64,000 nucleotides of DNA, from positions 1,798,001 to 1,862,000 of the forward strand of contig NZ_CP017562.2 of NCBI RefSeq assembly GCF_001865575.2. Direction: 5' to 3'. Positions 40,892-52,830 of this stretch are shown in pieces. The stretch's first letter is position 1. Every line of letters begins with the position of its first letter. The notes beneath the pieces are model-generated. The model was given only the letters and a program-made list of their open reading frames with translations, searched no databases and was not told where the DNA came from. The DNA comes from Paraburkholderia sprentiae WSM5005. Lineage in GTDB: Bacteria > Pseudomonadota > Gammaproteobacteria > Burkholderiales > Burkholderiaceae. Made by a program: the position numbers and the translations under genes.

Positions 40892-40939
40892 GATGAATCA
40901 ATGCTTCAATGCCCACTCGCTGGATCGACAGGAAAGCCG

Positions 40940-41446
40940 ATGAGCCCGAGTTCCGTTCCGCCCTCTTCGCCGCTGCCGGCCGTGTCTTCGGCGGCGCGGC
41001 GCGCCTGGATGGCCGTGCTGGCGCGCACGCCGCGCGCCGACCTCGAAGCCGCGCTGCAGCGCGCGCTGCAAGGCCGCCCCACCCCCGCGTACGACTGGTT
41101 GCGCGCTCCTGAAATCGGCCTCGCGATGGTGCGCGGACGGATCGGCGGCAGCGGCGATCCGTTCAATCTCGGCGAAGCGACGGTCACGCGCGCCACGCTG
41201 CGTCTGCATGCCGGCAGCGACGCCGAAGCCACCGTCGGCGTGGCCTGCCATCTGGGACGCGACCGCCGTCGCGCCGAACTTGCCGCTCTCGCCGATGCTT
41301 TGCTGCAGATGCCCGAGCATCACGACAGCGTGCATCGCCAGCTGATCGAGCCGTTCGCCGCGCAGCAGCAAGCGCGGCGCGCGCAACGGCAACAGGATGC
41401 CGCGGCGACGCGCGTCGAATTCTTCACGATGGTGCGAGGCGACTGA
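40940..41446 (+). CDS. phnG: C-P lyase core subunit PhnG
   Basis: 168-aa PhnG. Family segments: ARRAWMAVLARTPRADLEAAL, PEIGLAMVRGRIGGSGDPFNLGEATVTRATL and GVACHLGRDRRRAELAALADAL. It is part of the cytoplasmic PhnGHIJ complex that cleaves carbon-phosphorus bonds. AGGAAA precedes the ATG. First gene of the rightward operon; its stop overlaps the phnH start by one base (TGATG). Confidence 0.93.
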   Translation: MSPSSVPPSSPLPAVSSAARRAWMAVLARTPRADLEAALQRALQGRPTPAYDWLRAPEIGLAMVRGRIGGSGDPFNLGEATVTRATLRLHAGSDAEATVGVACHLGRDRRRAELAALADALLQMPEHHDSVHRQLIEPFAAQQQARRAQRQQDAAATRVEFFTMVRGD

Positions 41447-42057
41447 TGGAACATTCACCGATTGCGTTGTCCACGCTGACGCCAGGTTTCGCGGACCCGG
41501 TCCACGATAGCCAGGCCGTGTTTCGCACGCTGCTCGACACGTTGTCGCGGCCCGGCACGATCGGCGCGATCCGTGACGTGCTGCCCGAGTCGCGCAACAC
41601 GCCGGTCGAACCCGCCGCGTTCGCGGCGCTGCTGACGCTGTGCGACTACGCGACGCCGGTCTGGCTCGCGCAGCCCGATACCGCGCTCGCGTCGGCATTG
41701 CGTTTCCATAGCGGCGCGCCGCTCGTCGATGCGCCCGCCGCGGCCGCCTTCGTGTATGTGCACGATGCCGACGCGTTACCGTCGCTCGAAAGCTTTGCGC
41801 CCGGCAGCGCCGAGTCGCCCGAACAGTCGGCCACGCTGCTGATCCGCGTCGACGCGCTGAGCGGCGGCACACCGGTCACCCTCAGCGGGCCCGGCATTCG
41901 CGACACCGAAACAATTTCGCCGGTCGGTCTTCCCGCGCGGTTCTGGCAAGAACGCGCGATGCTCGCACCGCTGTTTCCGTGCGGCATCGACTGTTATCTG
42001 GTTTGCGGCCCGCGCGTGATCGGCCTGCCGCGCACAACCGAAGCGAAGGTGAACTGA
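41446..42057 (+). CDS. phnH: C-P lyase core subunit PhnH
   Basis: 203-aa PhnH. Typical segments: LTPGFADPVHDSQAVFRTLLDTLSRPGTI near the N-terminus and GPGIRDTETIS with FPCGIDCYLV later. It has a PLP-transferase-like fold without cofactor and is a structural part of the PhnGHIJ core. Coupled on both sides by one-base TGATG overlaps with phnG and phnI. Confidence 0.94.
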   Translation: MEHSPIALSTLTPGFADPVHDSQAVFRTLLDTLSRPGTIGAIRDVLPESRNTPVEPAAFAALLTLCDYATPVWLAQPDTALASALRFHSGAPLVDAPAAAAFVYVHDADALPSLESFAPGSAESPEQSATLLIRVDALSGGTPVTLSGPGIRDTETISPVGLPARFWQERAMLAPLFPCGIDCYLVCGPRVIGLPRTTEAKVN

Positions 42058-43193
42058 TGTACGTCGCCGTCAAAGGTGGGGAACGCGCGATCGAAGCGTC
42101 GTGGCGCTTGCTCGACAAAGCGCGCCGCGGCGATACGCAGATCGCCGAACTGAGCGTCGCGCAGATTCGCGAGCAGTTGCGACTCGCGGTCGCGCGCGTG
42201 ATGACTGAAGGCTCGGTGTACGACGAAGAGCTGGCCGCGCTCGCCATCAAGCAGGCGGCCGGCGATCTGGTCGAAGCGATCTTCCTGCTGCGCGCGTACC
42301 GCACCACGTTGCCGCGCTTCGGCTATACGCGTGCGATCGACACCGAAACGATGCAGGTCGAGCGGCGCATCTCGGCGACTTTCAAAGATTTGCCCGGCGG
42401 TCAGCTGCTCGGCGCGACCTACGATTACACGCAGCGTCTGCTCGATTTCGCGTTGCTGGCCGAAGCCGATGGCGCGCAACAGGAGGTGACGCGAGACAGC
42501 GCGCCGGCTCCGCAACAACCGCTCGCGCCGGACGCGATGCCACGCGTCGTGTCGCTGCTCGACAAGGAAGGCCTGATCGAACAGGAGCGCCCGACACCCG
42601 ACGGCGCGGAACCCGGCGATCTGTCGCGCGAACCGCTCGCGTTTCCGGCGAGCCGCGCGACGCGTCTGCAAAATCTCGCGCGCGGCGACGAGGGCTTTCT
42701 GCTCGCGATGGGCTATGCGACGCAACGCGGCTACGCGCACTCGCATCCGTTCGCGGGCGAGATCCGCTTCGGCACGATCGCGCTCGATATGGACCTCGAC
42801 GAACTCGGCGAAGCGGTCGACATCGGCGATATCGACATCACCGAATGCCAGATGATCAATCAGTTCGCGGGCAGCAGCGCGGTGCCGCCCACCTTCACGC
42901 AAGGCTATGGTCTCGCGTTCGGCCACTCGGAGCGCAAGGCGATGGCGATGGCGCTTGTCGATCGCGCGTTGCGCGCCGAAGAACTCGGCGAAACGCTCGC
43001 GTCACCGACGCAGGACATCGAATTCATGCTCTCGCACAGCGATAACGTCGAGGCGTCGGGCTTCGTGCAGCATCTGAAGCTGCCGCATTACGTCGACTTT
43101 CAGGCGGAGCTGGAACTGGTGCGGCGTCTGCGCGCGCAGCATCGAAGCAACGATGCGACGACCAACGCCGCCGACAAGGAGCAAGCAGCATGA
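42057..43193 (+). CDS. phnI: C-P lyase core subunit PhnI
   Basis: 378-aa PhnI beginning MYVAVKGGERAIEASWRLL. With PhnGHL it forms the activity that attaches a phosphonate to ribose of ATP, releasing adenine (nucleosidase function). Conserved segments: YTRAIDTETMQVERRIS, LARGDEGFLLAMGYATQRGYAHSHPF and EIRFGTIALDMD. The start is fixed by the TGATG overlap with phnH, and the end overlaps phnJ by four bases. Confidence 0.95.
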   Translation: MYVAVKGGERAIEASWRLLDKARRGDTQIAELSVAQIREQLRLAVARVMTEGSVYDEELAALAIKQAAGDLVEAIFLLRAYRTTLPRFGYTRAIDTETMQVERRISATFKDLPGGQLLGATYDYTQRLLDFALLAEADGAQQEVTRDSAPAPQQPLAPDAMPRVVSLLDKEGLIEQERPTPDGAEPGDLSREPLAFPASRATRLQNLARGDEGFLLAMGYATQRGYAHSHPFAGEIRFGTIALDMDLDELGEAVDIGDIDITECQMINQFAGSSAVPPTFTQGYGLAFGHSERKAMAMALVDRALRAEELGETLASPTQDIEFMLSHSDNVEASGFVQHLKLPHYVDFQAELELVRRLRAQHRSNDATTNAADKEQAA

Positions 43194-44122
43194 ACGCGCC
43201 CGACACCGCGCTCGCAAACACGTCCTACGACAGCGCCGCGCACGGCTACAACTTCGCGTATCTCGACGAGCAGACCAAGCGCATGTTGCGCCGCGCGTTG
43301 CTCAAGGCAGTCGCCGTGCCGGGCTACCAGGTGCCGTTCGCGTCGCGCGAAATGCCGCTGCCGTATGGCTGGGGCACCGGCGGCATCCAGGTGACGGCCG
43401 CCATCATCGGCAAAACGGACACACTGAAGGTCATCGACCAAGGCTCCGACGAGACCACCAACGCGGTCAACATCCGCCGCTTCTTCGCGCGCACCACGGG
43501 CGTGGCGACCACGCGCCACACCAGCGAAGCGACGATCATCCAGACGCGGCACCGGATTCCCGAAACGCCGCTGACCGAGCGGCAGATCCTCGTCTATCAG
43601 GTGCCGATGCCCGAGCCGCTGTACCGGCTCGAACCGCGCGTCGCCGAATGCAAAAAGCTGCATGCGCTCGCCGATTACGGCCTGATCAGCGTGAAGCTGT
43701 ACGAGGACATCGTGCATCACGGCAGCATCGCGACCACGTACGACTATCCGGTGATCGTCAATCATCGCTATCTGAGCTCGCCCTCGCCGATCCCGAAGTT
43801 CGACAACCCGAAGATGCATATGAACGCCGCGCTGCAACTGTTCGGCGCGGGCCGCGAGCGCCGCATCCACGCGATTCCGCCTTACACGCCGGTGCGCAGC
43901 CTCGACTTCGACGATCATCCGTTCGACGTGCAGAAGTGGCAGCATGCATGCGCGCTGTGCGGATCGAAGGAGAGCTTTCTCGACGAAATGATCGTCGACG
44001 ATGCGGGCACGCGCATGTTCGTGTGCTCGGATAGCGACTACTGTTACGAGCGGCGCGGCGATGGCGACATCGAACCGCAAGCGCCGCTGCCCGATACCGC
44101 GCGCGAAGGACAATCCGCATGA
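43190..44122 (+). CDS. phnJ: Carbon-phosphorus lyase, radical SAM subunit PhnJ
   Basis: 310-aa PhnJ. The four functional Cys are Cys254, Cys257, Cys279 and Cys285, with the same spacing (3, 22, 6) as the E. coli enzyme: the first three bind the [4Fe-4S] cluster and the last carries the thiyl radical. Family segments include FAYLDEQTKRMLRRALLKAVAVPGYQVPF and PYGWGTGGIQ. It cleaves the C-P bond of 5-phosphoribose 1-phosphonate. Overlaps with phnI and phnK are ATGA. Confidence 0.96.
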   Translation: MNAPDTALANTSYDSAAHGYNFAYLDEQTKRMLRRALLKAVAVPGYQVPFASREMPLPYGWGTGGIQVTAAIIGKTDTLKVIDQGSDETTNAVNIRRFFARTTGVATTRHTSEATIIQTRHRIPETPLTERQILVYQVPMPEPLYRLEPRVAECKKLHALADYGLISVKLYEDIVHHGSIATTYDYPVIVNHRYLSSPSPIPKFDNPKMHMNAALQLFGAGRERRIHAIPPYTPVRSLDFDDHPFDVQKWQHACALCGSKESFLDEMIVDDAGTRMFVCSDSDYCYERRGDGDIEPQAPLPDTAREGQSA

Positions 44123-44889
44123 CGCCGCTTCTGAGCGCACGCGCGCTCACCAAACAATATGGCGGCCGCAACGGTTGCCGCAACGTGAGTTTCGACTTGT
44201 ATCCGGGCGAGGTGCTGTGCATCGTCGGCGAATCGGGCTCGGGCAAGACCACGCTGCTCAACACGCTGGCGCTGAAGACCGAGGCCGATAGCGGCTCGCT
44301 GCACTACACCGCGTCGCACGGCGACTCGCTCGATCTGCGCGCGCTGTCCGAGCCGCGCCGCCGTCTGCTGATGCGCACCGAGTGGGGCTTCGTGCAGCAG
44401 AATCCGCGCGACGGCCTGCGCAGCGGCGTATCGGCCGGGGCCAACATCGGCGAGCCGCTAATGGCGGTCGGCGCGCGCCACTACGGCGAAATTCGCCGTA
44501 CGGCCACGCAATGGATGGAACGCGTCGAGCTCGACGCGACCCGCATCGACGAATTCCCCGCCGCGTTTTCGGGCGGCATGCAGCAGCGTCTGCAGATCGC
44601 GCGCAATCTCGTCACGGGTCCGCGTCTCGTGTTCATGGACGAACCGACCGCCGGTCTCGACGTGTCCGTGCAGGCGCGCCTACTCGATTTGCTGCGCACG
44701 CTGAGCTCGACGCTGCATCTGTCGGTGCTGATCGTCACGCACGATATCGGCGTCGCGCGTCTACTCGCGCATCGGCTCATGGTGATGCAGGCGGGCGAAG
44801 TCGTCGAAGCCGGCCTGACCGATCAGGTGCTCGACGATCCGCAGCACCCTTATACGCAAACGCTGGTTTCCTCGGTTCTGCCGGTTTGA
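44119..44889 (+). CDS. phnK: Phosphonate C-P lyase ATP-binding protein PhnK
   Basis: 256-aa ABC-type ATPase. Walker A GESGSGKTTLL, signature FSGGMQQRLQIARNL, Walker B LVFMDEPTAGLD and H-loop VTHDIG are all intact. PhnK binds the PhnGHIJ core rather than a membrane permease, as known for the C-P lyase complex. It overlaps phnJ by four bases. Confidence 0.95.
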   Translation: MTPLLSARALTKQYGGRNGCRNVSFDLYPGEVLCIVGESGSGKTTLLNTLALKTEADSGSLHYTASHGDSLDLRALSEPRRRLLMRTEWGFVQQNPRDGLRSGVSAGANIGEPLMAVGARHYGEIRRTATQWMERVELDATRIDEFPAAFSGGMQQRLQIARNLVTGPRLVFMDEPTAGLDVSVQARLLDLLRTLSSTLHLSVLIVTHDIGVARLLAHRLMVMQAGEVVEAGLTDQVLDDPQHPYTQTLVSSVLPV

Positions 44890-44898
44890 GGCTCACAC

Positions 44899-45675
44899 AT
44901 GCGATCCACTGAGGTAGTCATCGACGCAGGCAGCGATGCGCGCCACAGCGAGCGTGCTTTCGCCGACAACGCGGCGCTGATGCTGCGCGCCGCCGGCATC
45001 GGCAAGACCTTCACGCTGCACGGCCAGGGCGGCGTGCGGATCGACGCGCTCGCGAACGTGTCGCTCGAAGTCGAGCGCGGCGAATGCGTGGTGCTGGTCG
45101 GGCCGTCCGGTGCGGGCAAGAGCACGCTGCTGCGCTGTCTGTATGGCAACTATCTGGCAAGCGCCGGCTCGATCGCGATTCGCGACACCAGCGATCGAGA
45201 CCGGCCTGTCATGATCAGCGGTGCGGAACCGCGTGACGTGCTGCGCCTGCGCCGTAGCGTGGTCGGCTACGTGAGCCAGTTTTTACGCGTGATTCCGCGC
45301 GTGCCGACGCTCGCGTTGGTCGCCGAGCCGCTGCTGTTGCACGGCGTCGGCGAACCCGAAGCCCGGGCGCGCGCCGCTGAATTGCTCGCGCGGCTGAACG
45401 TGCCCGAGCGCCTGTGGCCGCTCGCGCCCGCGACGTTTTCGGGCGGCGAGCAGCAGCGCGTGAACATCGCGCGCGGTTTGATCGCCGGCCATCCGCTGTT
45501 GCTGCTCGACGAGCCGACTGCTTCGCTCGATGCGGAAAACCGCGACGTGGTGGCCGATCTGATCGTCGAGGCGCGCCAGCGCGGCGCGGCGATCGTTGGT
45601 ATCTTTCACGACGAAGCGACCCGCAACAAGGTCGCGACGCGCCGCCTGGAACTGCGCCCGCCGCTGCGGCACTAA
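44899..45675 (+). CDS. phnL: Phosphonate C-P lyase ATP-binding protein PhnL
   Basis: 258-aa ABC-type ATPase with Walker [13 protein letters not shown], signature [15 protein letters not shown] and Walker [13 protein letters not shown]. The N-terminal 30 residues are longer than usual. PhnL joins PhnG, H and I in making ribose triphosphate-phosphonate, with PhnK in the same complex. It begins nine bases after phnK. Confidence 0.94.
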
Positions 45676-45711
45676 GCTGAAACCAGTCCCGACTGACTAC
45701 GGAGCAAGTCG

Positions 45712-46845
45712 ATGTTGATTAGCAACGCTCGCATCGTGACGCGAGACGAAGAATTCATTGGCACGGTGCGCGTCGAAGACGGCGTGATTCGCGACGTCGA
45801 CCGCGGCGCGAGTTCGGCGCGCGACGCCGAAGACTGGGACGGCGATTATCTGCTGCCCGGTCTGATCGAACTGCATACGGACAACCTCGAGAAGCACCTC
45901 GTGCCGCGTCCCGGCGTCGAATGGAATACCGACGCGGCCTTCGTGATCCACGACGCACAGGTCGCCGCGGCCGGCATCACGACGGTATTCGACGCGCTGG
46001 CGATCGGTTCGCGCTCGAACGTCGGTCTGCGTAACCGCGACGTGCAGACGCAATGCGCCGATTCGTTGTTGCGGCTGTCCACACGCCGACTGCTGCGCGC
46101 CGAGCACTTTCTGCATCTGCGCTGCGAGATTGCGACCGCCGACGTGCTCGAGGTATTCGATTCGCTCTGCGCGCATCCGTTGTTGCGGCTCGCGTCGGTG
46201 ATGGACCATACGCCGGGCCAGCGCCAATGGCACGACCGCGAGCAATGGCGCCGCTACCAGGAGCGTAACGGCAGGATGAGCGACGAGCGCGTCGCAACCG
46301 CGCTCGCCGAGCTTGCGGTCGAACAGGAGCGTTACGCGGATGCGCACCGTCGCGAGATCGTCGAGCGTTGCGGGCGGCTCGGCATTCCGGTCGCGAGTCA
46401 CGACGACACGCTGATCGAGCACGTCGAACAGGCGAAGGCCGAGGGCATCGTGCTTGCCGAATTCCCGACCACGCGCATCGCCGCGCAAGCCGCGCGCGAG
46501 CACGGCATCGCGACGATCATGGGCGCGCCGAACATCGTGCGCGGCGGCTCGCATTCGGGCAACGTGTCGGCGCTCGAACTCGCGCGCGCGGATCTGCTCG
46601 ACATTCTGTCGTCGGATTACGTGCCGTCGAGCTTGCTGACCGCGGTGTTCGATCTCGTCGAAAAAGCGGGCTGGTCGCTGCCGCGCGCGATGGCAACCGT
46701 CTCGGCCGAACCGGCGCGCACCGCGGCCCTCACGGATCGCGGCGCGATCGAACCGGGTCTGCGCGCCGACCTCGTGCGCGTGACGATGCTCGACAAGCTG
46801 CCGGTGCCGCGCGCGACTTATCGCGGCGGAGTGCGGATCGTGTGA
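45712..46845 (+). CDS. phnM: Alpha-D-ribose 1-methylphosphonate 5-triphosphate diphosphatase
   Basis: 377-aa amidohydrolase-fold enzyme. Metal residues are in LIELHTDNLEKHLVPRPGVEW, SHDDT and the typical IMGAPNIVRGGSHSGN. PhnM removes pyrophosphate from the ribose triphosphate phosphonate before PhnJ acts. Last gene of the rightward arm; no transporter genes (phnCDE) follow within the window. Confidence 0.95.
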   Translation: MLISNARIVTRDEEFIGTVRVEDGVIRDVDRGASSARDAEDWDGDYLLPGLIELHTDNLEKHLVPRPGVEWNTDAAFVIHDAQVAAAGITTVFDALAIGSRSNVGLRNRDVQTQCADSLLRLSTRRLLRAEHFLHLRCEIATADVLEVFDSLCAHPLLRLASVMDHTPGQRQWHDREQWRRYQERNGRMSDERVATALAELAVEQERYADAHRREIVERCGRLGIPVASHDDTLIEHVEQAKAEGIVLAEFPTTRIAAQAAREHGIATIMGAPNIVRGGSHSGNVSALELARADLLDILSSDYVPSSLLTAVFDLVEKAGWSLPRAMATVSAEPARTAALTDRGAIEPGLRADLVRVTMLDKLPVPRATYRGGVRIV

Positions 46846-46931: not shown

Positions 46932-48773
46932 TCACGCGGTGGGCTCCGCCTCGCGCCCCTCGGTCGCATCGCGCGCGGCCTGCGCCTGGGCGAGCTGGGC
47001 GCGGGCAAGCTCCCGCGCCTGCTCAGCCTGTTCGTCGAGCCGCGCCGCGAGCAGATCCCGATAGCGCAGATACGCGCAACGTCCGCCCGATTTCGCCGCA
47101 TACATCGCGGCATCGGCATTCAGCAGTAGTTCCTCGGCATTGCCGCTGTCGTGCGGGAACTCGCTGATGCCGATGCTCGCGCCGACCGTCATGCTATTGC
47201 CGTCGACGCTCAGCGTTTCATTCAGCGCATCCATGATGCGCGCGGCGATCGCGGGCGTGACTTCCGCCGCGCGCGGCCCTTCGATCAGCACGATGAATTC
47301 GTCGCCGCCGAGCCGCGCGACCACGTCCGCGGCGTACAGCACGTCCTTCAGACGGCGCGCGATCGTGACCAGCACCTTGTCGCCGACGGAGTGACCGAAC
47401 TGATCGTTGATCTGCTTGAAGCCGTCGAGGTCGACGAACAGCACGGCGAGGCCTTCGCGGCGAAATCTTGCCTCGTCGATCGCGTTTTCGAGCTTCTGCA
47501 TGAACAGCATGCGGTTCGGCAAGCCGGTCAGCACGTCGTGCGAGGCCAGATGCACGAGCTCGCTTTGCTTGCTGTGCAGCGCATCCATCTGCGCGCGAAT
47601 TTCGCGGCGCAAACGCTCGAAGCAGCGCGCGAGCACGCCGATTTCGTCGGTGCGTTTGAGCGGCAAGGTGTGCATCGCGTGCTCGGCGAACAGGTGAGTC
47701 GCCGCATGCGCGAGCAGATGCAGCGGCTTGGTCAGCGCCCGCGCGAACAGGATCGCCAGCAGTACCGACAAGGCGCTGAACACCAGCACCATGCGAATGA
47801 TCCGCGAGCCGAGCTGATTGGCACCGCTCAACACGTCCTCGAGCGGCTTGGCGAGACCGAGCACGATGAAGCGATTGCCCTCCGAACCGCCGAACGGCCG
47901 CCGCACGAACGCGAGCACGCGCCCGGCCGCCTCGCCGGACCCGGTGAGACCGTTGACGAGCACCTCGCTCTGCCGTTGCTCGAACAGCTGCTTCGTGACC
48001 GGGAAGCTGTCCTGCATCAGCACGCGCCGGCCGCGGTCGAAGCCGAAGGTCTTCGACGCGTCGGGATGAACCAGGAAGTCGCCCCACTCGTTCGCCAGAT
48101 AGACCTGATAGTCGCTCGGCAGATCGCTCTGCAAACGCCGCAGCATGCCGGCCAGGTCGATGTCGATCACGACCACGCCGACCACCGCGCCGCGCGCGTC
48201 CGCGATCGGCGTGCCTAGGCGCAGCGTCGGCTTGCCTTGCGCCGCATGCGTGCCGGATTCGTGATTGACCGAAATCGGTGACGTGTAGATGCGGCCCGGC
48301 GAAAACGCGAGCGTTTCGAACACGTAGGGGAATTGAGCTTTTTCCTGCAGACCGTCACCCTTGACCCGCACGAGACCGTCGCTGTCGCGATCGAAACGGA
48401 TCGCCTCGAGCCCGTGATGCTGCCGCGTGATCAGCCGCATCTGCAGATACTCCGCGTGGTGCAGCATGAAGCTCGAATACACCTGCGCGAGCCGCTCGCG
48501 GGCAAGGTTCGGGCCGATGCCGTCGTCGGTCTGCGCGACGATTACCGACGACGGCATCGTCGCGAGCACGAGCGCGTCCGCCGCGACGTCGTCGATCGAT
48601 ACCGCGATGCGCTGGCCGAGCAGCTCCGTCGAAGTCTGCAGGCTGTGCTCGGCTTCGTTGACGAGCATCGTGCGATTGGCGCGATACGCGTAATAGCCGG
48701 TCGCGCCCGACGCCAGCACGCCGATGCACGCGAGCAGCACGGATAGCTTGAAGGTCAGGCCGCGGCGCAGCAT
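46932..48773 (-). CDS. Membrane diguanylate cyclase with periplasmic sensor
   Basis: 613-aa protein. A membrane helix (about 8-30) is followed by a periplasmic region of about 260 residues with a Cache-like pattern (VVGVVVIDIDLAGMLRRL), a second helix (about 310-332), HAMP (ALTKPLHLLAHAATHL) and a GGDEF domain (about 405-565) with intact RLGGDEFIVL. The inhibitory site is degenerate (YAAD in place of RxxD), so product inhibition may be weak. The last 40 residues are an Ala/Gln coiled tail. The start overlaps the stop of the binding-protein gene (TGATG), so it is translationally coupled to it. Confidence 0.9.
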   Translation of the reverse strand: MLRRGLTFKLSVLLACIGVLASGATGYYAYRANRTMLVNEAEHSLQTSTELLGQRIAVSIDDVAADALVLATMPSSVIVAQTDDGIGPNLARERLAQVYSSFMLHHAEYLQMRLITRQHHGLEAIRFDRDSDGLVRVKGDGLQEKAQFPYVFETLAFSPGRIYTSPISVNHESGTHAAQGKPTLRLGTPIADARGAVVGVVVIDIDLAGMLRRLQSDLPSDYQVYLANEWGDFLVHPDASKTFGFDRGRRVLMQDSFPVTKQLFEQRQSEVLVNGLTGSGEAAGRVLAFVRRPFGGSEGNRFIVLGLAKPLEDVLSGANQLGSRIIRMVLVFSALSVLLAILFARALTKPLHLLAHAATHLFAEHAMHTLPLKRTDEIGVLARCFERLRREIRAQMDALHSKQSELVHLASHDVLTGLPNRMLFMQKLENAIDEARFRREGLAVLFVDLDGFKQINDQFGHSVGDKVLVTIARRLKDVLYAADVVARLGGDEFIVLIEGPRAAEVTPAIAARIMDALNETLSVDGNSMTVGASIGISEFPHDSGNAEELLLNADAAMYAAKSGGRCAYLRYRDLLAARLDEQAEQARELARAQLAQAQAARDATEGREAEPTA

Positions 48774-50011
48774 CAGAAGCGCTCCGAACGGTCGCCCGAC
48801 ACGATCCGCGCCCACAGTTGCTCGCGGCGCTCGATATCCTCGACCGGACTGAGCCAGACGATGTGCGCGTCGGCGCTGCCTTCGGCCGGCTCGCTCAGCG
48901 TATTCGCGAGTCCCTGGCGCTGCGTGAGCAACGCGCTCACGCTCGGTTCGAGCATGTAGTTGATCCACGCGAGCGCGAGCGGCTTGTCGCTCGCCGCGCG
49001 CGTCATCGACCAGCAATCGAGCCACGCGAGCGCGCCTTCGTCCGGAATCACATAGCCGACGTCCGCGCCCGCACGCCGCAGCAACTGCACCTGCTGCGTG
49101 CCGTAGTTGCCGAACATCAGCGCGACCTTGTGCTGGATGAAGAACGCGGTCGCCTCTTCGGGCAGCGTGTAATAGGTGAGCAGGTTGCGGCGCAGATCGA
49201 CGAGCTTGTGCGCGATCGTGCGCATCTGCGCGGAGTCGAGTTCAAACGGATGCGGATAGCCGAGCGCGAGCGCGGTGAACGAGAAGTTGTGCTGCGCACT
49301 ATTGAAGTCGAGCACCTTGCCGCGATAGCGCGGGTTCCAGAGTTCGAGCATCGAATGGGGCGCCACCGGAATCTGCTGACGATCGTAGATGAGTCCCATC
49401 GACGAATACGTGAACGGAATCGCGTACACCTTGCCCGCCGACGTCAGCCCGTCGATCGCACCGAGTGCCTGGAAACGCGGCAACTGCTTCTTCGTGTTCG
49501 GCAGACTCGCGAGATCGAGCGGCGCGAGCAGATTCGCCTGCGTGTAGCGGCGAATTTCCGCGGTATTGGCGGCGAGTACGTCGAACGGCGGCGTGCCCTT
49601 GCTGTGCATCTGCGCCCACAGCGCCTCGTCCGAATCGACGAGCGTGACCTCGACCTTCGCGCCATAGCGCGTTTCGAACGCCTTCACGACGTCCGGATCC
49701 GCATAGCCGGGCCACGCCAGCACGTGCAGCACTTTGTCGGCGGCCGCGGCGGGCGCCGCCGCGCCGAAACCGGCGCACAGGAATGCCCCTATCACGAAGC
49801 GCAAGACGCGGGGTAAAACCCCGCACAAAACGGCGCACCAAAATCCGGATCCGCCAATCGATGAAAATCCCGATGCAAAGATCGACGAAAAACCGCGCAA
49901 AAACCGGCGCTGAAATAATGGCGCGCCAGCCTGCGCACCGGCGCTCGCGATTGGTCGCTTAAAAGCCGGTTTGGAAGAGCCTGTTTGATCCGCCGTGAAC
50001 ATCGTGCGCAT
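48773..50011 (-). CDS. PotD-like periplasmic polyamine-type binding protein
   Basis: 412-aa protein with this start. The mature part, from about 93 (ADKVLHVLAWPGYADPDVVKAFETRYG), follows the spermidine/putrescine-binding family: IPFTYSSMGLIYDRQQIPVAP, LWNPRYRGKVLDFN and ALAWINYMLEPSVSALL. The export signal is VLRFVIGAFLCAGFGAAAPAAAA, well inside the frame, so the true start is probably downstream of the listed ATG. A 7-bp hairpin (49808-49824) lies in that leader. There is no permease or ATPase gene near it. The next gene is a membrane diguanylate cyclase overlapping by one base, so it probably acts as a sensor, not in uptake. Confidence 0.8.
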   Translation of the reverse strand: MRTMFTADQTGSSKPAFKRPIASAGAQAGAPLFQRRFLRGFSSIFASGFSSIGGSGFWCAVLCGVLPRVLRFVIGAFLCAGFGAAAPAAAADKVLHVLAWPGYADPDVVKAFETRYGAKVEVTLVDSDEALWAQMHSKGTPPFDVLAANTAEIRRYTQANLLAPLDLASLPNTKKQLPRFQALGAIDGLTSAGKVYAIPFTYSSMGLIYDRQQIPVAPHSMLELWNPRYRGKVLDFNSAQHNFSFTALALGYPHPFELDSAQMRTIAHKLVDLRRNLLTYYTLPEEATAFFIQHKVALMFGNYGTQQVQLLRRAGADVGYVIPDEGALAWLDCWSMTRAASDKPLALAWINYMLEPSVSALLTQRQGLANTLSEPAEGSADAHIVWLSPVEDIERREQLWARIVSGDRSERF

Positions 50012-50053: not shown

Positions 50054-50664
50054 ACGCGCGGCATTTGAATCTTGACGGCTGTCCGACGACGACCTGCCTC
50101 AGAGCGATCCGCCCCGCGCGGCGGACGCCGTCCAGCGCAGGGAGCATCGATCATAGCGCCAAAGCCCGCGTTTTTACACCGCTTCGAAATGGCGGCGAAC
50201 AAATGTCGGGCGTTGGCGATGACGTGTAATGCAATGATCCCAACGCTCCGGTTAATTAACGGCAATTTCAGGCGCGAGCTTTAATCATCCGTCCGCGTTT
50301 CAAACTCGCGTTTCAAACCGGCTTTCGGCAAAACTCGCGAGAAACCGGTTGTAAATGCAGTCGATTACGCTCGCGCACCCGCCGTATTACCGCTCGCGCA
50401 TTACACCCGCGTTACGCAAACTCCCCCGACCGTGTACGATCCGGTCGCACCGGCTTGCGCGCAAGCGTTACTCTAGAGAGCTTCCTCCTGCGCCATCCGG
50501 TGTTTTCCTAGCTTCCCAATATTTTTGAACTGATAAGCTTGGCGCGCGTTGCAGGCCACCTGGGCTTGCAGCCTGACCAGAAGCCCGGTCGTGAGACGCG
50601 CTGGGCGTCCCAAGGCGGCACAACCGTCGAGGGCGAAATTGAACTACACCGAGGAGTAAAAACA
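50054..50664. other. 611-base gene-free stretch with repeats and ABC leader
   Basis: No convincing gene. It holds the upstream regions of the divergent binding-protein genes. A 12-base unit CGCGTTTCAAAC is repeated in tandem with a 13-base period (50294-50318), and AACCGG/CCGGTT arms flank the adjoining sequence. The last 130 bases before the GTG at 50665 can fold into GGGCTT...AAGCCC-type hairpins and may be an mRNA leader. Confidence 0.5.
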
Positions 50665-51447
50665 GTGAAGAAACTGCTAGCGGCTTTGACGGTTGCTCTG
50701 CTTGCCACCGTCTCGATTGGCGCACACGCTAAAGATTGGTCGACGATCCGTTTTGGCGTTGATGCCAGCTATCCCCCGTTCGAGTCGAAAGGCGCGGACG
50801 GCAAGCTCGTTGGCTTCGATATCGACCTCGGCAACGAAATTTGCAAGCGCGTCGGCGCGAAGTGCGTGTGGGTGGAAAACGACTTCGACGGCATGATTCC
50901 GGCACTGAAGGCAAAGAAGTTCGACGGCGTGCTGTCGTCGATGTCGATGACGCCGCAACGCGCTGAGCAGATTGCCTTCTCGTCGAAGCTGTTCAACACG
51001 CCGACCCGCCTCGTCGCGAAGAAGGGCTCGGGCATCATGCCGACCGCTGAATCGCTGAAGGGCAAAACGGTGGGCGTCGAACAGGGCACCATCCAGGAAA
51101 CCTACGCGAAGACCTACTGGGAACCGAAGGGCGCGAAAGTCGTGCCGTATCAGAACCAGGACCAGGTCTACGCCGACCTGATTTCGGGCCGTCTGGACGC
51201 AGCACTGCAGGATGCGGTGCAGGCTGAGCAGGGCTTCCTGAAGACGCCGCGCGGCGCGGGCTTTACGTTCGTCGGCAAGGACCTCGACGATCCGAAGATC
51301 CTCGGCAACGGCGCCGGCATCGGCATGCGCAAGGAAGACACCGATTTGAAGGCGAAGGTCGACAAGGCGATCGCCGACATGATCAAGGACGGCACCTACA
51401 AGAAGATCGAGAAGAAGTACTTCGACTTCGACGTGTACGGCAGCTAA
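50665..51447 (+). CDS. Basic amino-acid ABC transporter binding protein (HisJ/ArgT-like)
   Basis: 260-aa periplasmic binding protein with a GTG start and GAGGAG 8 bases upstream, giving a signal peptide cut after AHA (about residue 22). Ligand-fold segments: IRFGVDASYPPFESKGADGKLVGFDIDLGNEIC, GVLSSMSMTPQRAEQI and LQDAVQAEQGFLK. These match the lysine/arginine/ornithine-histidine group. The permease and ATPase genes are not in the window. A strong terminator follows, so it is probably transcribed alone. The AstE-like gene downstream is a possible metabolic partner. Confidence 0.92.
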   Translation: MKKLLAALTVALLATVSIGAHAKDWSTIRFGVDASYPPFESKGADGKLVGFDIDLGNEICKRVGAKCVWVENDFDGMIPALKAKKFDGVLSSMSMTPQRAEQIAFSSKLFNTPTRLVAKKGSGIMPTAESLKGKTVGVEQGTIQETYAKTYWEPKGAKVVPYQNQDQVYADLISGRLDAALQDAVQAEQGFLKTPRGAGFTFVGKDLDDPKILGNGAGIGMRKEDTDLKAKVDKAIADMIKDGTYKKIEKKYFDFDVYGS

Positions 51448-51490
51448 ACCGCCCGCGCGCGCCGCACGGCGCGCCGGCAGCTTGCCAGAG

Positions 51491-51521
51491 ACGGGCTCCG
51501 CGACGCGGAGCCCGTTTTGTT
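51491..51521 (+). terminator. Rho-independent terminator after the amino-acid binding protein
   Basis: Stem ACGGGCTCC/GGAGCCCGT with a GC-rich loop, followed by TTTTGTTTT. It lies 44 bases after the stop of the binding-protein gene. Confidence 0.9.
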
Positions 51522-51714
51522 TTGCGGTTGCACATCAAGCCGCATCAAGCCACATCGTGTGGCATATCGGCTAAGATCGTGCCAAACGCGGCCGACGCGA
51601 GACAGGCTGCCGTCGCCCGCGCACGCGGACTCCGCGCGCAGCCGGCGCGTATCTTTCCCCTTGCAATCAACTACCTAGCGCGGCTGCTCCGGAACGGGCC
51701 GCGAAGCCAAAACC

Positions 51715-52830
51715 ATGCAAACCCAGACCCATCCGCTGATTGCCCCGTCGCTTGGCACTGCCCGCGAACTGACGAGTTTCCACTACGGTCCCGGCGGCGG
51801 ACAGAAGATCTATATCCAGTCGTCGCTGCACGCGGACGAGCTGCCCGGCATGCTGGTGTCGTGGTCGCTGCGCCGCAAGCTGGCCGCGCTTGAAGCCGCG
51901 GACAAGCTGCGCGGGGAAGTCGTGGTCGTGCCGGTGCCGAATCCGATCGGCCTGAACCAGCATCTGCTCGGCCAGATGCTCGGCCGCTTCGAAACCGGCA
52001 GCGCGCAAAACTTCAACCGCAACTTCTATGACCTCGCCGAACTCGTGCTGCCGGTCATCGAGTCGCGTCTGAGCGGCGACATCGACGCGAACCGCGCCGC
52101 CATCCGCACGGCGATGCGCGAAGCGCTCGACGCGCAGCAGCCGACCACCGAACTCGGCTCGCAGCGCCTCGCGCTGCAAAAGCTCTCGTACGACGCCGAC
52201 GTCGTGCTCGATCTGCATTGCGACTGGGAAGCAGCGTTGCACCTGTACACCAATCCGGACCTGTGGCCCGAAGTCGAGCCGCTCGCGCGCTACCTGGACG
52301 CGAAGGCGTCGCTGCTCGCGCTGAACTCGGTCGGCAATCCGTTCGACGAAATCCACAGCTTCTGCTGGTCGGATCTACGCAGCCGTTTCGGCGAGCGCTT
52401 CCCGATCCCGAACGGCGGAATTTCGGTCACGATCGAGCTGCGCGGCCAGCGTGACGTGTCCTACGAGCTGGCCGAAAAAGACGCACAGGCCATCATCGAC
52501 TATCTGACCTCGCGCGGCGTGATCCACGGCGAACCGGCGCCGCTGCCGCCGCTCGAATTCGCGGCGACGCCGCTCGCGGGCACCGAGCCGCTCGTCGCGC
52601 CGATCAGCGGCGTGCTCGTCTATCGCTGCCCGGTCGGCGCGTGGGTGGACGTGGGCAAGGAAATCGCGGACATCGTCGATCCGCTGACGGACCGCGTCGT
52701 CACGATCAAAAGCACCGTGGCCGGCGTGCTGTACGCGCGGCATCTGGCGCGCTTCGCCACGGCCGGCCTCGAGTTCGCGCGCATTGCCGGCGCAACGCCG
52801 TTCCGCAGCGGCTCGTTGCTGAGCAACTGA
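51715..52830 (+). CDS. Succinylglutamate desuccinylase/aspartoacylase family protein
   Basis: 371-aa zinc carboxypeptidase-like deacylase. Zinc ligands appear in SLHADELPG (His and Glu, about residues 38-46) and VLDLHCDWEAALH (about 161-173), and the NPIGLNQ segment is typical. The C-terminal part (about 290-360, APISGVLVYRCPVGAWVDVGKEIADIV) resembles a biotinyl/lipoyl-like barrel often found in this group. It removes an acyl group from an N-acylated amino acid; the natural substrate is not clear. It is longer than AstE proper (about 330 aa). Confidence 0.85.
   Translation: MQTQTHPLIAPSLGTARELTSFHYGPGGGQKIYIQSSLHADELPGMLVSWSLRRKLAALEAADKLRGEVVVVPVPNPIGLNQHLLGQMLGRFETGSAQNFNRNFYDLAELVLPVIESRLSGDIDANRAAIRTAMREALDAQQPTTELGSQRLALQKLSYDADVVLDLHCDWEAALHLYTNPDLWPEVEPLARYLDAKASLLALNSVGNPFDEIHSFCWSDLRSRFGERFPIPNGGISVTIELRGQRDVSYELAEKDAQAIIDYLTSRGVIHGEPAPLPPLEFAATPLAGTEPLVAPISGVLVYRCPVGAWVDVGKEIADIVDPLTDRVVTIKSTVAGVLYARHLARFATAGLEFARIAGATPFRSGSLLSN

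What the first reader, a model, noticed from the sequence alone, without database searches (positions are those of the whole stretch)
46932..50011. Permease-less PotD-like binding protein coupled to a membrane diguanylate cyclase
A periplasmic polyamine-type binding protein gene and a membrane GGDEF gene overlap as TGATG, with no ABC permease or ATPase nearby. In Vibrio cholerae, NspS (a PotD-like protein) controls the c-di-GMP enzyme MbaA without transporting. Here the partner is a cyclase with a periplasmic Cache-like region and a degenerate inhibitory site, and it has no EAL domain. That would make a polyamine-to-biofilm switch of opposite polarity. The parallel with NspS/MbaA is inference.
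Basis: partly seen in the sequence, partly recalled or inferred. Interest (0 to 1): 0.75.

Follow-up and report, generated by a model that had tools for sequence, protein, structure and literature searches.

The report
Nutrient-binding protein coupled to c-di-GMP cyclase
Two adjoining genes encode a periplasmic nutrient-binding protein with no transporter beside it and a membrane enzyme predicted to make the biofilm signal c-di-GMP; comparison with relatives points to sugar acids rather than polyamines as the signal, which is untested.

Summary
A solute-binding protein (SBP) gene (48773-50011, -) and a membrane GGDEF gene (46932-48773, -) share one base (TGATG); no ABC importer permease lies in the window. 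The pair is real: the genes adjoin in 80 of 80 close relatives (overlapping in 77), and in an even sample of 399 Burkholderiales genomes all 16 that hold this cyclase have the SBP directly beside it. The reverse fails: 11 of the 27 genomes with the SBP lack the cyclase.

The polyamine reading is not supported. At four positions where PotD/PotF-type SBPs mostly carry acids, this SBP has S, H, Q and D. Its nearest importer-borne relatives (45-46% identical; 12 of 14 chosen pocket positions equal) lie in operons that look like oxidative pentose/sugar-acid catabolism. 'Opposite polarity' has no evidence; the lost I-site is lineage-specific.

Best reading: an SBP from a sugar-acid importer lineage lost its transporter and now gates a dCache-type receptor cyclase; relatives carry GGDEF or GGDEF-EAL on the same receptor. 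It works like NspS/MbaA, but membership was not shown. Ligand, contact and polarity are untested. New variant of a known kind.

The parts
48773..50011 (-). Solute-binding protein gene (412 aa from the ATG at 50011; residue n of the mature numbering used here is residue n+94 of this ORF)
   Evidence: SBP_bac_8 95.8 bits; best NCBIfam models PotF 82.5 and PotD 69.3 bits, far under cut-offs 636 and 582
49739..49807 (-). Likely signal-peptide hydrophobic stretch and cleavage region (VLRFVIGAFLCAGFGAAAPAAAA)
   Evidence: read; similar hydrophobic stretch before the L-x-V-L-A-W start in the relatives printed; no signal-peptide program was run
48776..49729 (-). Mature binding domain used in alignments A1/A4; pocket positions W6, Y9, N55, A57, N143, S144, H147, N148, Y187, N208, Q213, W236, D238, W240
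48771..48775 (-). TGATG: SBP stop and cyclase start sharing one base
   Evidence: overlap kept in 77 of 80 relatives
48782..48785 (-). GGAG, possible ribosome-binding site of the cyclase inside the SBP gene, 8 nt before its ATG
   Evidence: read; not tested
46932..48773 (-). Membrane diguanylate cyclase gene (613 aa)
48684..48752 (-). First membrane helix of the cyclase (about residues 8-30)
   Evidence: sequence and the long helix 4-72 of the model; limits approximate
47799..48677 (-). Periplasmic dCache-type receptor domain (about residues 33-325); PF21623 match at residues 92-246
   Evidence: 2p7j and 3lid, TM-score by target 0.78-0.82
47595..47750 (-). HAMP-like segment (residues 342-393)
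   Evidence: under the Pfam cut-off here; over it in several relatives
47079..47546 (-). GGDEF domain (residues 410-565), intact GGDEF motif at 47295-47309
47325..47336 (-). Degenerate I-site (YAAD in place of RxxD, residues 480-483)

Best explanation
The two genes form one signalling unit. The SBP is exported, closes on a periplasmic ligand and docks on the dCache-type domain of the cyclase, changing the packing of the membrane and HAMP-like helices and with it the activity of the GGDEF dimer, so that c-di-GMP rises or falls. The SBP comes from a lineage of sugar-acid ABC importers and has lost its permeases and ATPase; its ligand is most likely a sugar acid or the parent sugar (a pentonate such as arabinonate or xylonate, or a hexuronate), probably plant-derived, not a polyamine. 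Shown: gene overlap, co-conservation, absence of importer genes in the window, shared ancestry and shared pocket residues with importer SBPs of sugar-acid-type operons, intact GGDEF motif. Inferred: docking, direction of the response, the exact ligand, translational coupling.
For: Cyclase never without the SBP: 16 of 16 in 399 Burkholderiales genomes, and adjoining in 80 of 80 close relatives. Three further pairs outside the order (L222, L223, L228). Other PotD-like SBPs of the genome sit with their transporters. Tree: SBPs without importer genes form one clade (98/99) that joins importer SBPs L224-L227 and L229 at 97/89, apart from PotD/PotF-type rows. L224-L227 equal the window SBP at 12 of 14 chosen pocket positions, and all four have ATPase, two permeases, GguC/AraD1, a xylose-dehydrogenase-like SDR and an IlvD/Edd dehydratase in the same stretch. 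Sugar-acid-type genes also near Rhizobium and Phaeobacter importer relatives and near the pair itself in some loci: fructuronate-reductase-like in 17, ManD in 15, UxuA with an ExuR/UxuR-like regulator in 7 of 80. Receptor fold and relatives beside other SBPs. SBP-driven receptors are a described general mechanism (PMC9602780 passages).
Against: No binding, contact or c-di-GMP data. 11 of 27 SBP-bearing Burkholderiales genomes lack the cyclase. In the window the neighbours are phnM and an argT/astE pair, not sugar-acid genes; phnM is the neighbour in 21 of 80 loci. Neighbours in other loci are unrelated, and two could speak for amines: an arginase-family gene beside the pair in L062 and a tyramine oxidase about 3.4 kb from the Phaeobacter importer SBP. 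The sugar-acid neighbours of the pair are mostly on the opposite strand. The importer ATPase in L225 matches PotA best (369 bits, cut-off 482), and the SDR and the L-arabinonate-dehydratase equivalog are under cut-off. The SBP model is too weak for pocket geometry (mean pLDDT 64.7). Placing the pair inside its clade is unresolved.
Confidence: 0.6

Rival explanations
1. One reading: a polyamine sensor of the NspS/MbaA type with a cyclase in place of the GGDEF-EAL enzyme.
For: Best named models and solved relatives are PotF and PotD; W6, Y9, W236 and D238 are kept; overlapping SBP/c-di-GMP gene pair without importer, as in NspS-MbaA.
Against: At positions 144, 147, 213 and 238, where five PotD/PotF-type rows have acids in 4, 4, 5 and 5 rows, the window has S, H, Q, D; the spermidine-binding type 4eqb shows D and E where this SBP has N and H (alignment). 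The own-genome PotF-like SBP itself has A and Q at 144 and 147, so these positions are not strict. Nearest importer relatives lie in sugar-acid-type operons.
Confidence: 0.12
2. The cyclase binds its ligand directly through the dCache domain; the SBP only delivers or buffers ligand, or the two act independently.
For: Receptor core residues (R113, G121, E123, Q143, N170, E172, H236) are kept in most of 32 relatives that lack this SBP; dCache cyclases with proposed direct ligands are described (PMC8846402 passages).
Against: E144, F152 and H176 are kept in at least 15 of 16 paired members and in 0 of 32 others, as expected of a partner surface, although a different pocket could look alike; the cyclase was never found without the SBP.
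Confidence: 0.15
3. The SBP still serves an ABC importer encoded elsewhere; its linkage to the cyclase is only for co-expression.
For: The genome has 109 permease matches; 11 genomes keep the SBP alone, so it can be useful without the cyclase.
Against: Solo members too have no importer gene among 20 neighbour proteins scanned in 9 of 11 loci; the cyclase never occurs without the SBP.
Confidence: 0.08

Closest known systems
NspS-MbaA (Vibrio cholerae; Sinorhizobium meliloti)
   Same: PotD-superfamily SBP without importer, in an overlapping pair with a membrane c-di-GMP enzyme; MbaA also lacks the I-site (PMC9993111 section 17)
   Different: MbaA has GGDEF and EAL (SGDEF/EVL in V. cholerae) and a shorter periplasmic part (residues 24-256 in S. 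meliloti); NspS binds polyamines. The word Burkholderia does not occur in the main text of that survey. V. cholerae NspS/MbaA were not compared here directly
ArtI-STM1987 (Salmonella, L-arginine)
   Same: An SBP needed for the response of a dCache-type membrane GGDEF cyclase (PMC8846402 passage)
   Different: ArtI is another SBP family (SBP_bac_3 type, recalled); adjacency of the two genes not checked
Importer SBPs of L224-L227 and, further off, Rhizobium pRL12 and Phaeobacter
   Same: Same SBP family; 45-46% identity and 12 of 14 chosen pocket positions for L224-L227
   Different: They have an ATPase and two permeases and lie with catabolic genes; no cyclase receptor found in the stretches read
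Histidine kinases with a PhnD-like SBP upstream
   Same: Homologous receptor domain with an SBP gene directly upstream in 7 of 32 stretches read
   Different: SBP of another superfamily and kinase output
   Same: SBP_bac_6/8 protein, 4-nt overlap with a GGDEF gene
   Different: SBP lies outside the permease-less clade (long branch, place unsure); its receptor part shows no similarity to ours (single sequence); EAL match stops early

Membership tests
NspS-MbaA | PotD-superfamily SBP in an overlapping gene pair with a membrane c-di-GMP enzyme, no importer beside it | tested here: met
NspS-MbaA | Partner has both GGDEF and EAL | tested here: not met
   no EAL in the window; EAL only in relatives L121 and L222
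NspS-MbaA | Polyamine-type pocket in the SBP | tested here: not met
   roles of single residues are recalled, binding itself not testable here
NspS-MbaA | SBP orthologous to NspS | tested here: inconclusive
   NspS itself was not available; the NspS-MbaA-like L157 falls outside the permease-less clade but on a long branch
NspS-MbaA | Receptor domain homologous to that of MbaA | tested here: inconclusive
   only L157 could be compared: no similarity, but a single sequence
NspS-MbaA | c-di-GMP response to polyamines through SBP-receptor contact | not testable with these tools
   needs experiment
PotD/PotF polyamine-binding proteins | Score over the curated cut-off of the PotD or PotF model | tested here: not met
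   69.3 and 82.5 bits against 582 and 636
SBP family of sugar-acid-type importers (L224-L227 group) | Groups with these SBPs and shares their pocket residues | tested here: met
   97/89; 12 of 14 positions
SBP family of sugar-acid-type importers (L224-L227 group) | Binds a sugar acid or sugar | not testable with these tools
   the importers' substrate is itself inferred from operon genes
Active diguanylate cyclases | Intact GGDEF motif and catalytic residues | tested here: met
   RLGGDEF, D448, N456, D457 invariant in 28 aligned members; one of 80 relatives (L027) reads GSDEF
dCache / PF21623 receptors | Score over PF21623 cut-off and fold match | tested here: met
   39.4 over 27; 2p7j, 3lid; dCache_1 itself is under cut-off

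The most novel reading that the evidence does not exclude
The binding protein of a sugar-acid importer lost its transporter, in one event on the tree at hand, and became a free periplasmic nutrient reporter. In some lineages it is wired through one receptor domain to exchangeable c-di-GMP outputs (GGDEF, GGDEF-EAL, a longer GGDEF-EAL form); in others it stands alone and must talk to receptors not yet known. In Paraburkholderia it would turn plant cell-wall sugar acids into a biofilm or motility decision.
Probability: 0.5. Interest if true: 0.72.

Novelty: new variant of a known kind. Interest (0 to 1): 0.6.

Why it matters
For most c-di-GMP receptors the outside signal is unknown (general knowledge). 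This pair comes with a specific and cheaply testable ligand class drawn from its importer relatives, in a genus rich in plant associates (general knowledge), and with a natural series (importer, pair, solo) for studying how a transport protein becomes a sensor. It also warns that 'PotD-like' in an annotation need not mean polyamine.

Tried and rejected
Polyamine ligand: rejected as the leading reading. Phosphonate ligand, suggested by the neighbouring C-P lyase genes: PhnS model only 20 bits and phnM the neighbour in only 21 of 80 loci; rejected. Missing EAL and I-site as signs of reversed polarity: rejected. I first took the 1027-aa partner in L222 for a histidine kinase from its length; one search showed GGDEF-EAL. 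Histidine-kinase and PAS-GGDEF-EAL proteins with the same receptor part (P0303, P0304, P0281) have no known neighbourhood, so I do not count them as pairs. I first thought the SBP family confined to Burkholderiales (of 369 class genomes only the own one reaches family level, the next best being 6.9e-36); one search found it elsewhere. A search in the family of G660 (2 of 23 genomes matched at 1e-60) led nowhere. The SBP model is too weak for pocket geometry. I first counted 80 of 80 overlaps; with true start codons it is 77 of 80.
Full report
What is there. On the minus strand two ORFs share one base: a 412-aa exported solute-binding protein (48773-50011) and a 613-aa membrane protein (46932-48773) with a Cache-type periplasmic domain, a HAMP-like segment and a GGDEF domain. 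The SBP belongs to SBP_bac_8; its best named models are PotF and PotD, but at 82.5 and 69.3 bits, far below cut-offs of 636 and 582. The partner's receptor part passes PF21623 (39.4 bits, cut-off 27); dCache_1 and HAMP are below their cut-offs; there is no EAL. The model of the partner is good (mean pLDDT 84.2) and its receptor part matches the Cache-type structures 2p7j and 3lid (TM-score by target 0.78-0.82). The SBP model is weak (64.7) but still finds YdcS, PotF and PotD first.

No importer. None of the 109 ABC permease matches or 22 TOBE_2 ATPase matches of this genome lies in the window; the nearest permease is about 52 kb from the pair. The four other PotD-like SBPs found by sequence each lie beside a TOBE_2 ATPase and two permeases (positions). 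PhnL, and PhnK by position, are C-P lyase ATPases (PhnK recalled).

The pair is a unit. Of 132 confirmed loci the best 80 were kept. In 80 of 80 the cyclase follows the SBP; the genes overlap by 1 nt in 51, by 4 nt in 26 and are 2 nt apart in 3. The surroundings differ: 45 loci share the argT neighbour, the others do not. In an even sample of 399 Burkholderiales genomes, 27 have the SBP family, with a clear gap (weakest 1e-113, threshold 1e-30). In 16 of these the cyclase receptor lies beside it (E 1.8e-93 or better), and no genome of the sample has the receptor at that level without the SBP. Nine of these more distant pairs were read (L118-L122, L124-L127); there the genes abut or overlap, but start codons are not settled.

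Solo members. The other 11 SBPs have no such cyclase. I scanned 20 neighbour proteins in 9 of the 11 loci (L123, L128-L133, L136, L137); L134 is a near-copy of L133 and L135 was only listed. None of the 20 is an importer permease or a GGDEF protein. L133 has an exporter-type ABC protein next door, L129 an SBP_bac_3 protein, L123 a chemoreceptor and L137 a histidine kinase. L136 has a GGDEF match in a 370-aa ORF about 3.9 kb from the SBP. Three of the 11 genomes (G068, G151, G188) have a remote relative of the receptor elsewhere (1e-16 to 1e-17). So the cyclase goes with the SBP, not the other way round.

Outputs vary. One order member, L121, has GGDEF plus EAL (the other seven scanned there have GGDEF only). 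A phylum sample of 329 genomes (12 with a match, 13 places) added three pairs outside the order: L223 and L228 with GGDEF, and L222 with a 1027-aa protein matching GGDEF-EAL models, overlapping by 1 or 4 nt by ORF limits. The receptor of L228 is more remote (7.5e-30). In L222 GGDEF starts about 180 residues later than in the window; the extra stretch was not named by the library used. Other proteins with the same receptor part carry PAS-GGDEF-EAL or histidine-kinase outputs (P0281, P0303, P0304); their neighbourhoods are unknown to me.

The receptor recurs beside other SBPs. I fetched 32 stretches chosen from the hits. None has the present SBP; 7 of 32 have a PhnD-like SBP directly upstream (three confirmed as PF12974). 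Core residues such as R113, G121, Q143, Y150, N170, E172 and H236 are kept in at least 28 of 32; E144, F152 and H176 are kept in at least 15 of 16 paired members and in 0 of 32 others. I predict that these three lie on the SBP contact or in a pocket special to the pair.

Ligand. At 14 positions chosen from alignments to PotD/PotF-type SBPs (roles of single residues recalled) the window reads WYNANSHNYNQWDW and the other SBPs without importer read the same or nearly so; PotD/PotF-type rows read for example WESYDDEIAWDWDL; importer SBPs L224-L227 read WYNADNHNYNQWDW, equal to the window at 12 of 14. The PotD/PotF-type rows are five (the own-genome PotF-like SBP and four class hits, all four with an ABC ATPase in the stretch read) and were not checked against named families. 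The own PotF-like SBP also departs from the acids at two positions, so the test is not strict. In the tree of 45 rows the SBPs without importer form one clade (98/99) that joins importer SBPs L224-L227 and L229 at 97/89; these and four further importer SBPs, with the long branch L157, are set apart from PotD/PotF-type rows at 100/100. Origin of the pair within the clade is unresolved.

L224-L227 have an ATPase and two permeases and, in all four, GguC/AraD1, a xylose-dehydrogenase-like SDR and an IlvD/Edd dehydratase; the GntR-type regulator of L225 is matched in L226 and L227, not in L224. By NCBIfam (L224 and L225 only) GguC (490 over 340) and the dehydratase subfamily (941 over 539) pass, the L-arabinonate-dehydratase equivalog (853 and 871, cut-off 882) and the SDR (355 and 334, cut-off 400) fall short; the ATPase of L225 matches PotA best but under cut-off (369, 482). 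Next relatives in Rhizobium and Phaeobacter (33-36%) lie with ATPase, permeases and genes annotated RbsD/FucU, amidohydrolase, aldo/keto reductase, altronate dehydratase family, SMP-30 and mandelate racemase family; a tyramine oxidase lies about 3.4 kb from the Phaeobacter SBP. Near the pair itself, 17 of 80 loci have a fructuronate-reductase-like gene (470 bits, cut-off 603), 15 ManD (735 over 550), and 7 Burkholderia loci UxuA (420 over 200) with an ExuR/UxuR-like regulator (under cut-off); one representative of each cluster was scanned. Most of these lie on the other strand. Against this, phnM is the neighbour in 21 loci including close relatives of the window, L062 has an arginase-family gene beside the pair, and other loci have unrelated neighbours. 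I therefore put sugar acids ahead of polyamines without naming one.

Polarity and I-site. The sign of the response cannot be read from sequence. RxxD is present in 16 and absent in 64 of 80 relatives, all 16 being Burkholderia (L027, which reads GSDEF, was added). Both described MbaAs lack it (PMC9993111 section 17). In V. cholerae norspermidine-loaded NspS favours cyclase activity and the unloaded or spermidine state favours phosphodiesterase activity (PMC8967002 passages).

Known systems. SBP-driven receptors, including cyclases/phosphodiesterases, are described as a general mechanism (PMC9602780 passages); NspS-MbaA and ArtI-STM1987 are closest in logic. Seven searches of the held library (one search lists 12 of 40) listed no paper that from its title or abstract start describes this pair; most subscription papers are not held. 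Two surveys of B. cenocepacia c-di-GMP proteins were seen in part (PMC5835511 passages; PMC6335245 abstract, section 14 and passages); what I read mentions no SBP partner, and I did not map the orthologue.

Verdict. Observation confirmed, with two corrections of detail; coupling reading supported; polyamine and polarity readings not. New variant of a known kind, interest 0.6.

Noticed in passing
50539-52830: A second SBP without an importer in the window: a lysine/arginine/ornithine-type binding protein (TIGR01096, 282 bits over 256) followed by an AstE/AspA-type gene; both are kept beside the pair in 45 of 80 relatives.
   Followed up: partly
40901-46845: C-P lyase genes (PhnL and PhnM over their NCBIfam cut-offs, the rest named by position) run towards the cyclase gene with an 86-bp gap; phnM is near the cyclase in 21 of 80 relatives.
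   Followed up: partly
L123, L128-L137: Eleven Burkholderiales genomes keep the SBP alone, without the cyclase and without importer genes among the neighbours scanned; what it talks to is unknown.
   Followed up: partly
   Followed up: partly
L177-L180, L183-L185: PhnD-like SBP genes directly upstream of histidine kinases that carry a relative of the same receptor domain.
   Followed up: partly
P0124, P0165, P0195, P0200, P0210, P0231 (relatives of 46932-48773): Several orthologues of the cyclase carry the source name deoxyuridine 5'-triphosphate nucleotidohydrolase, which looks like a spread misannotation.
   Followed up: no
L071 9281-11299: A GGDEF-EAL protein is encoded on the same strand shortly after the pair in one Caballeronia locus.
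   Followed up: no
L136 763-1875: A solo SBP locus has a GGDEF match in a 370-aa ORF about 3.9 kb from the SBP.
   Followed up: no
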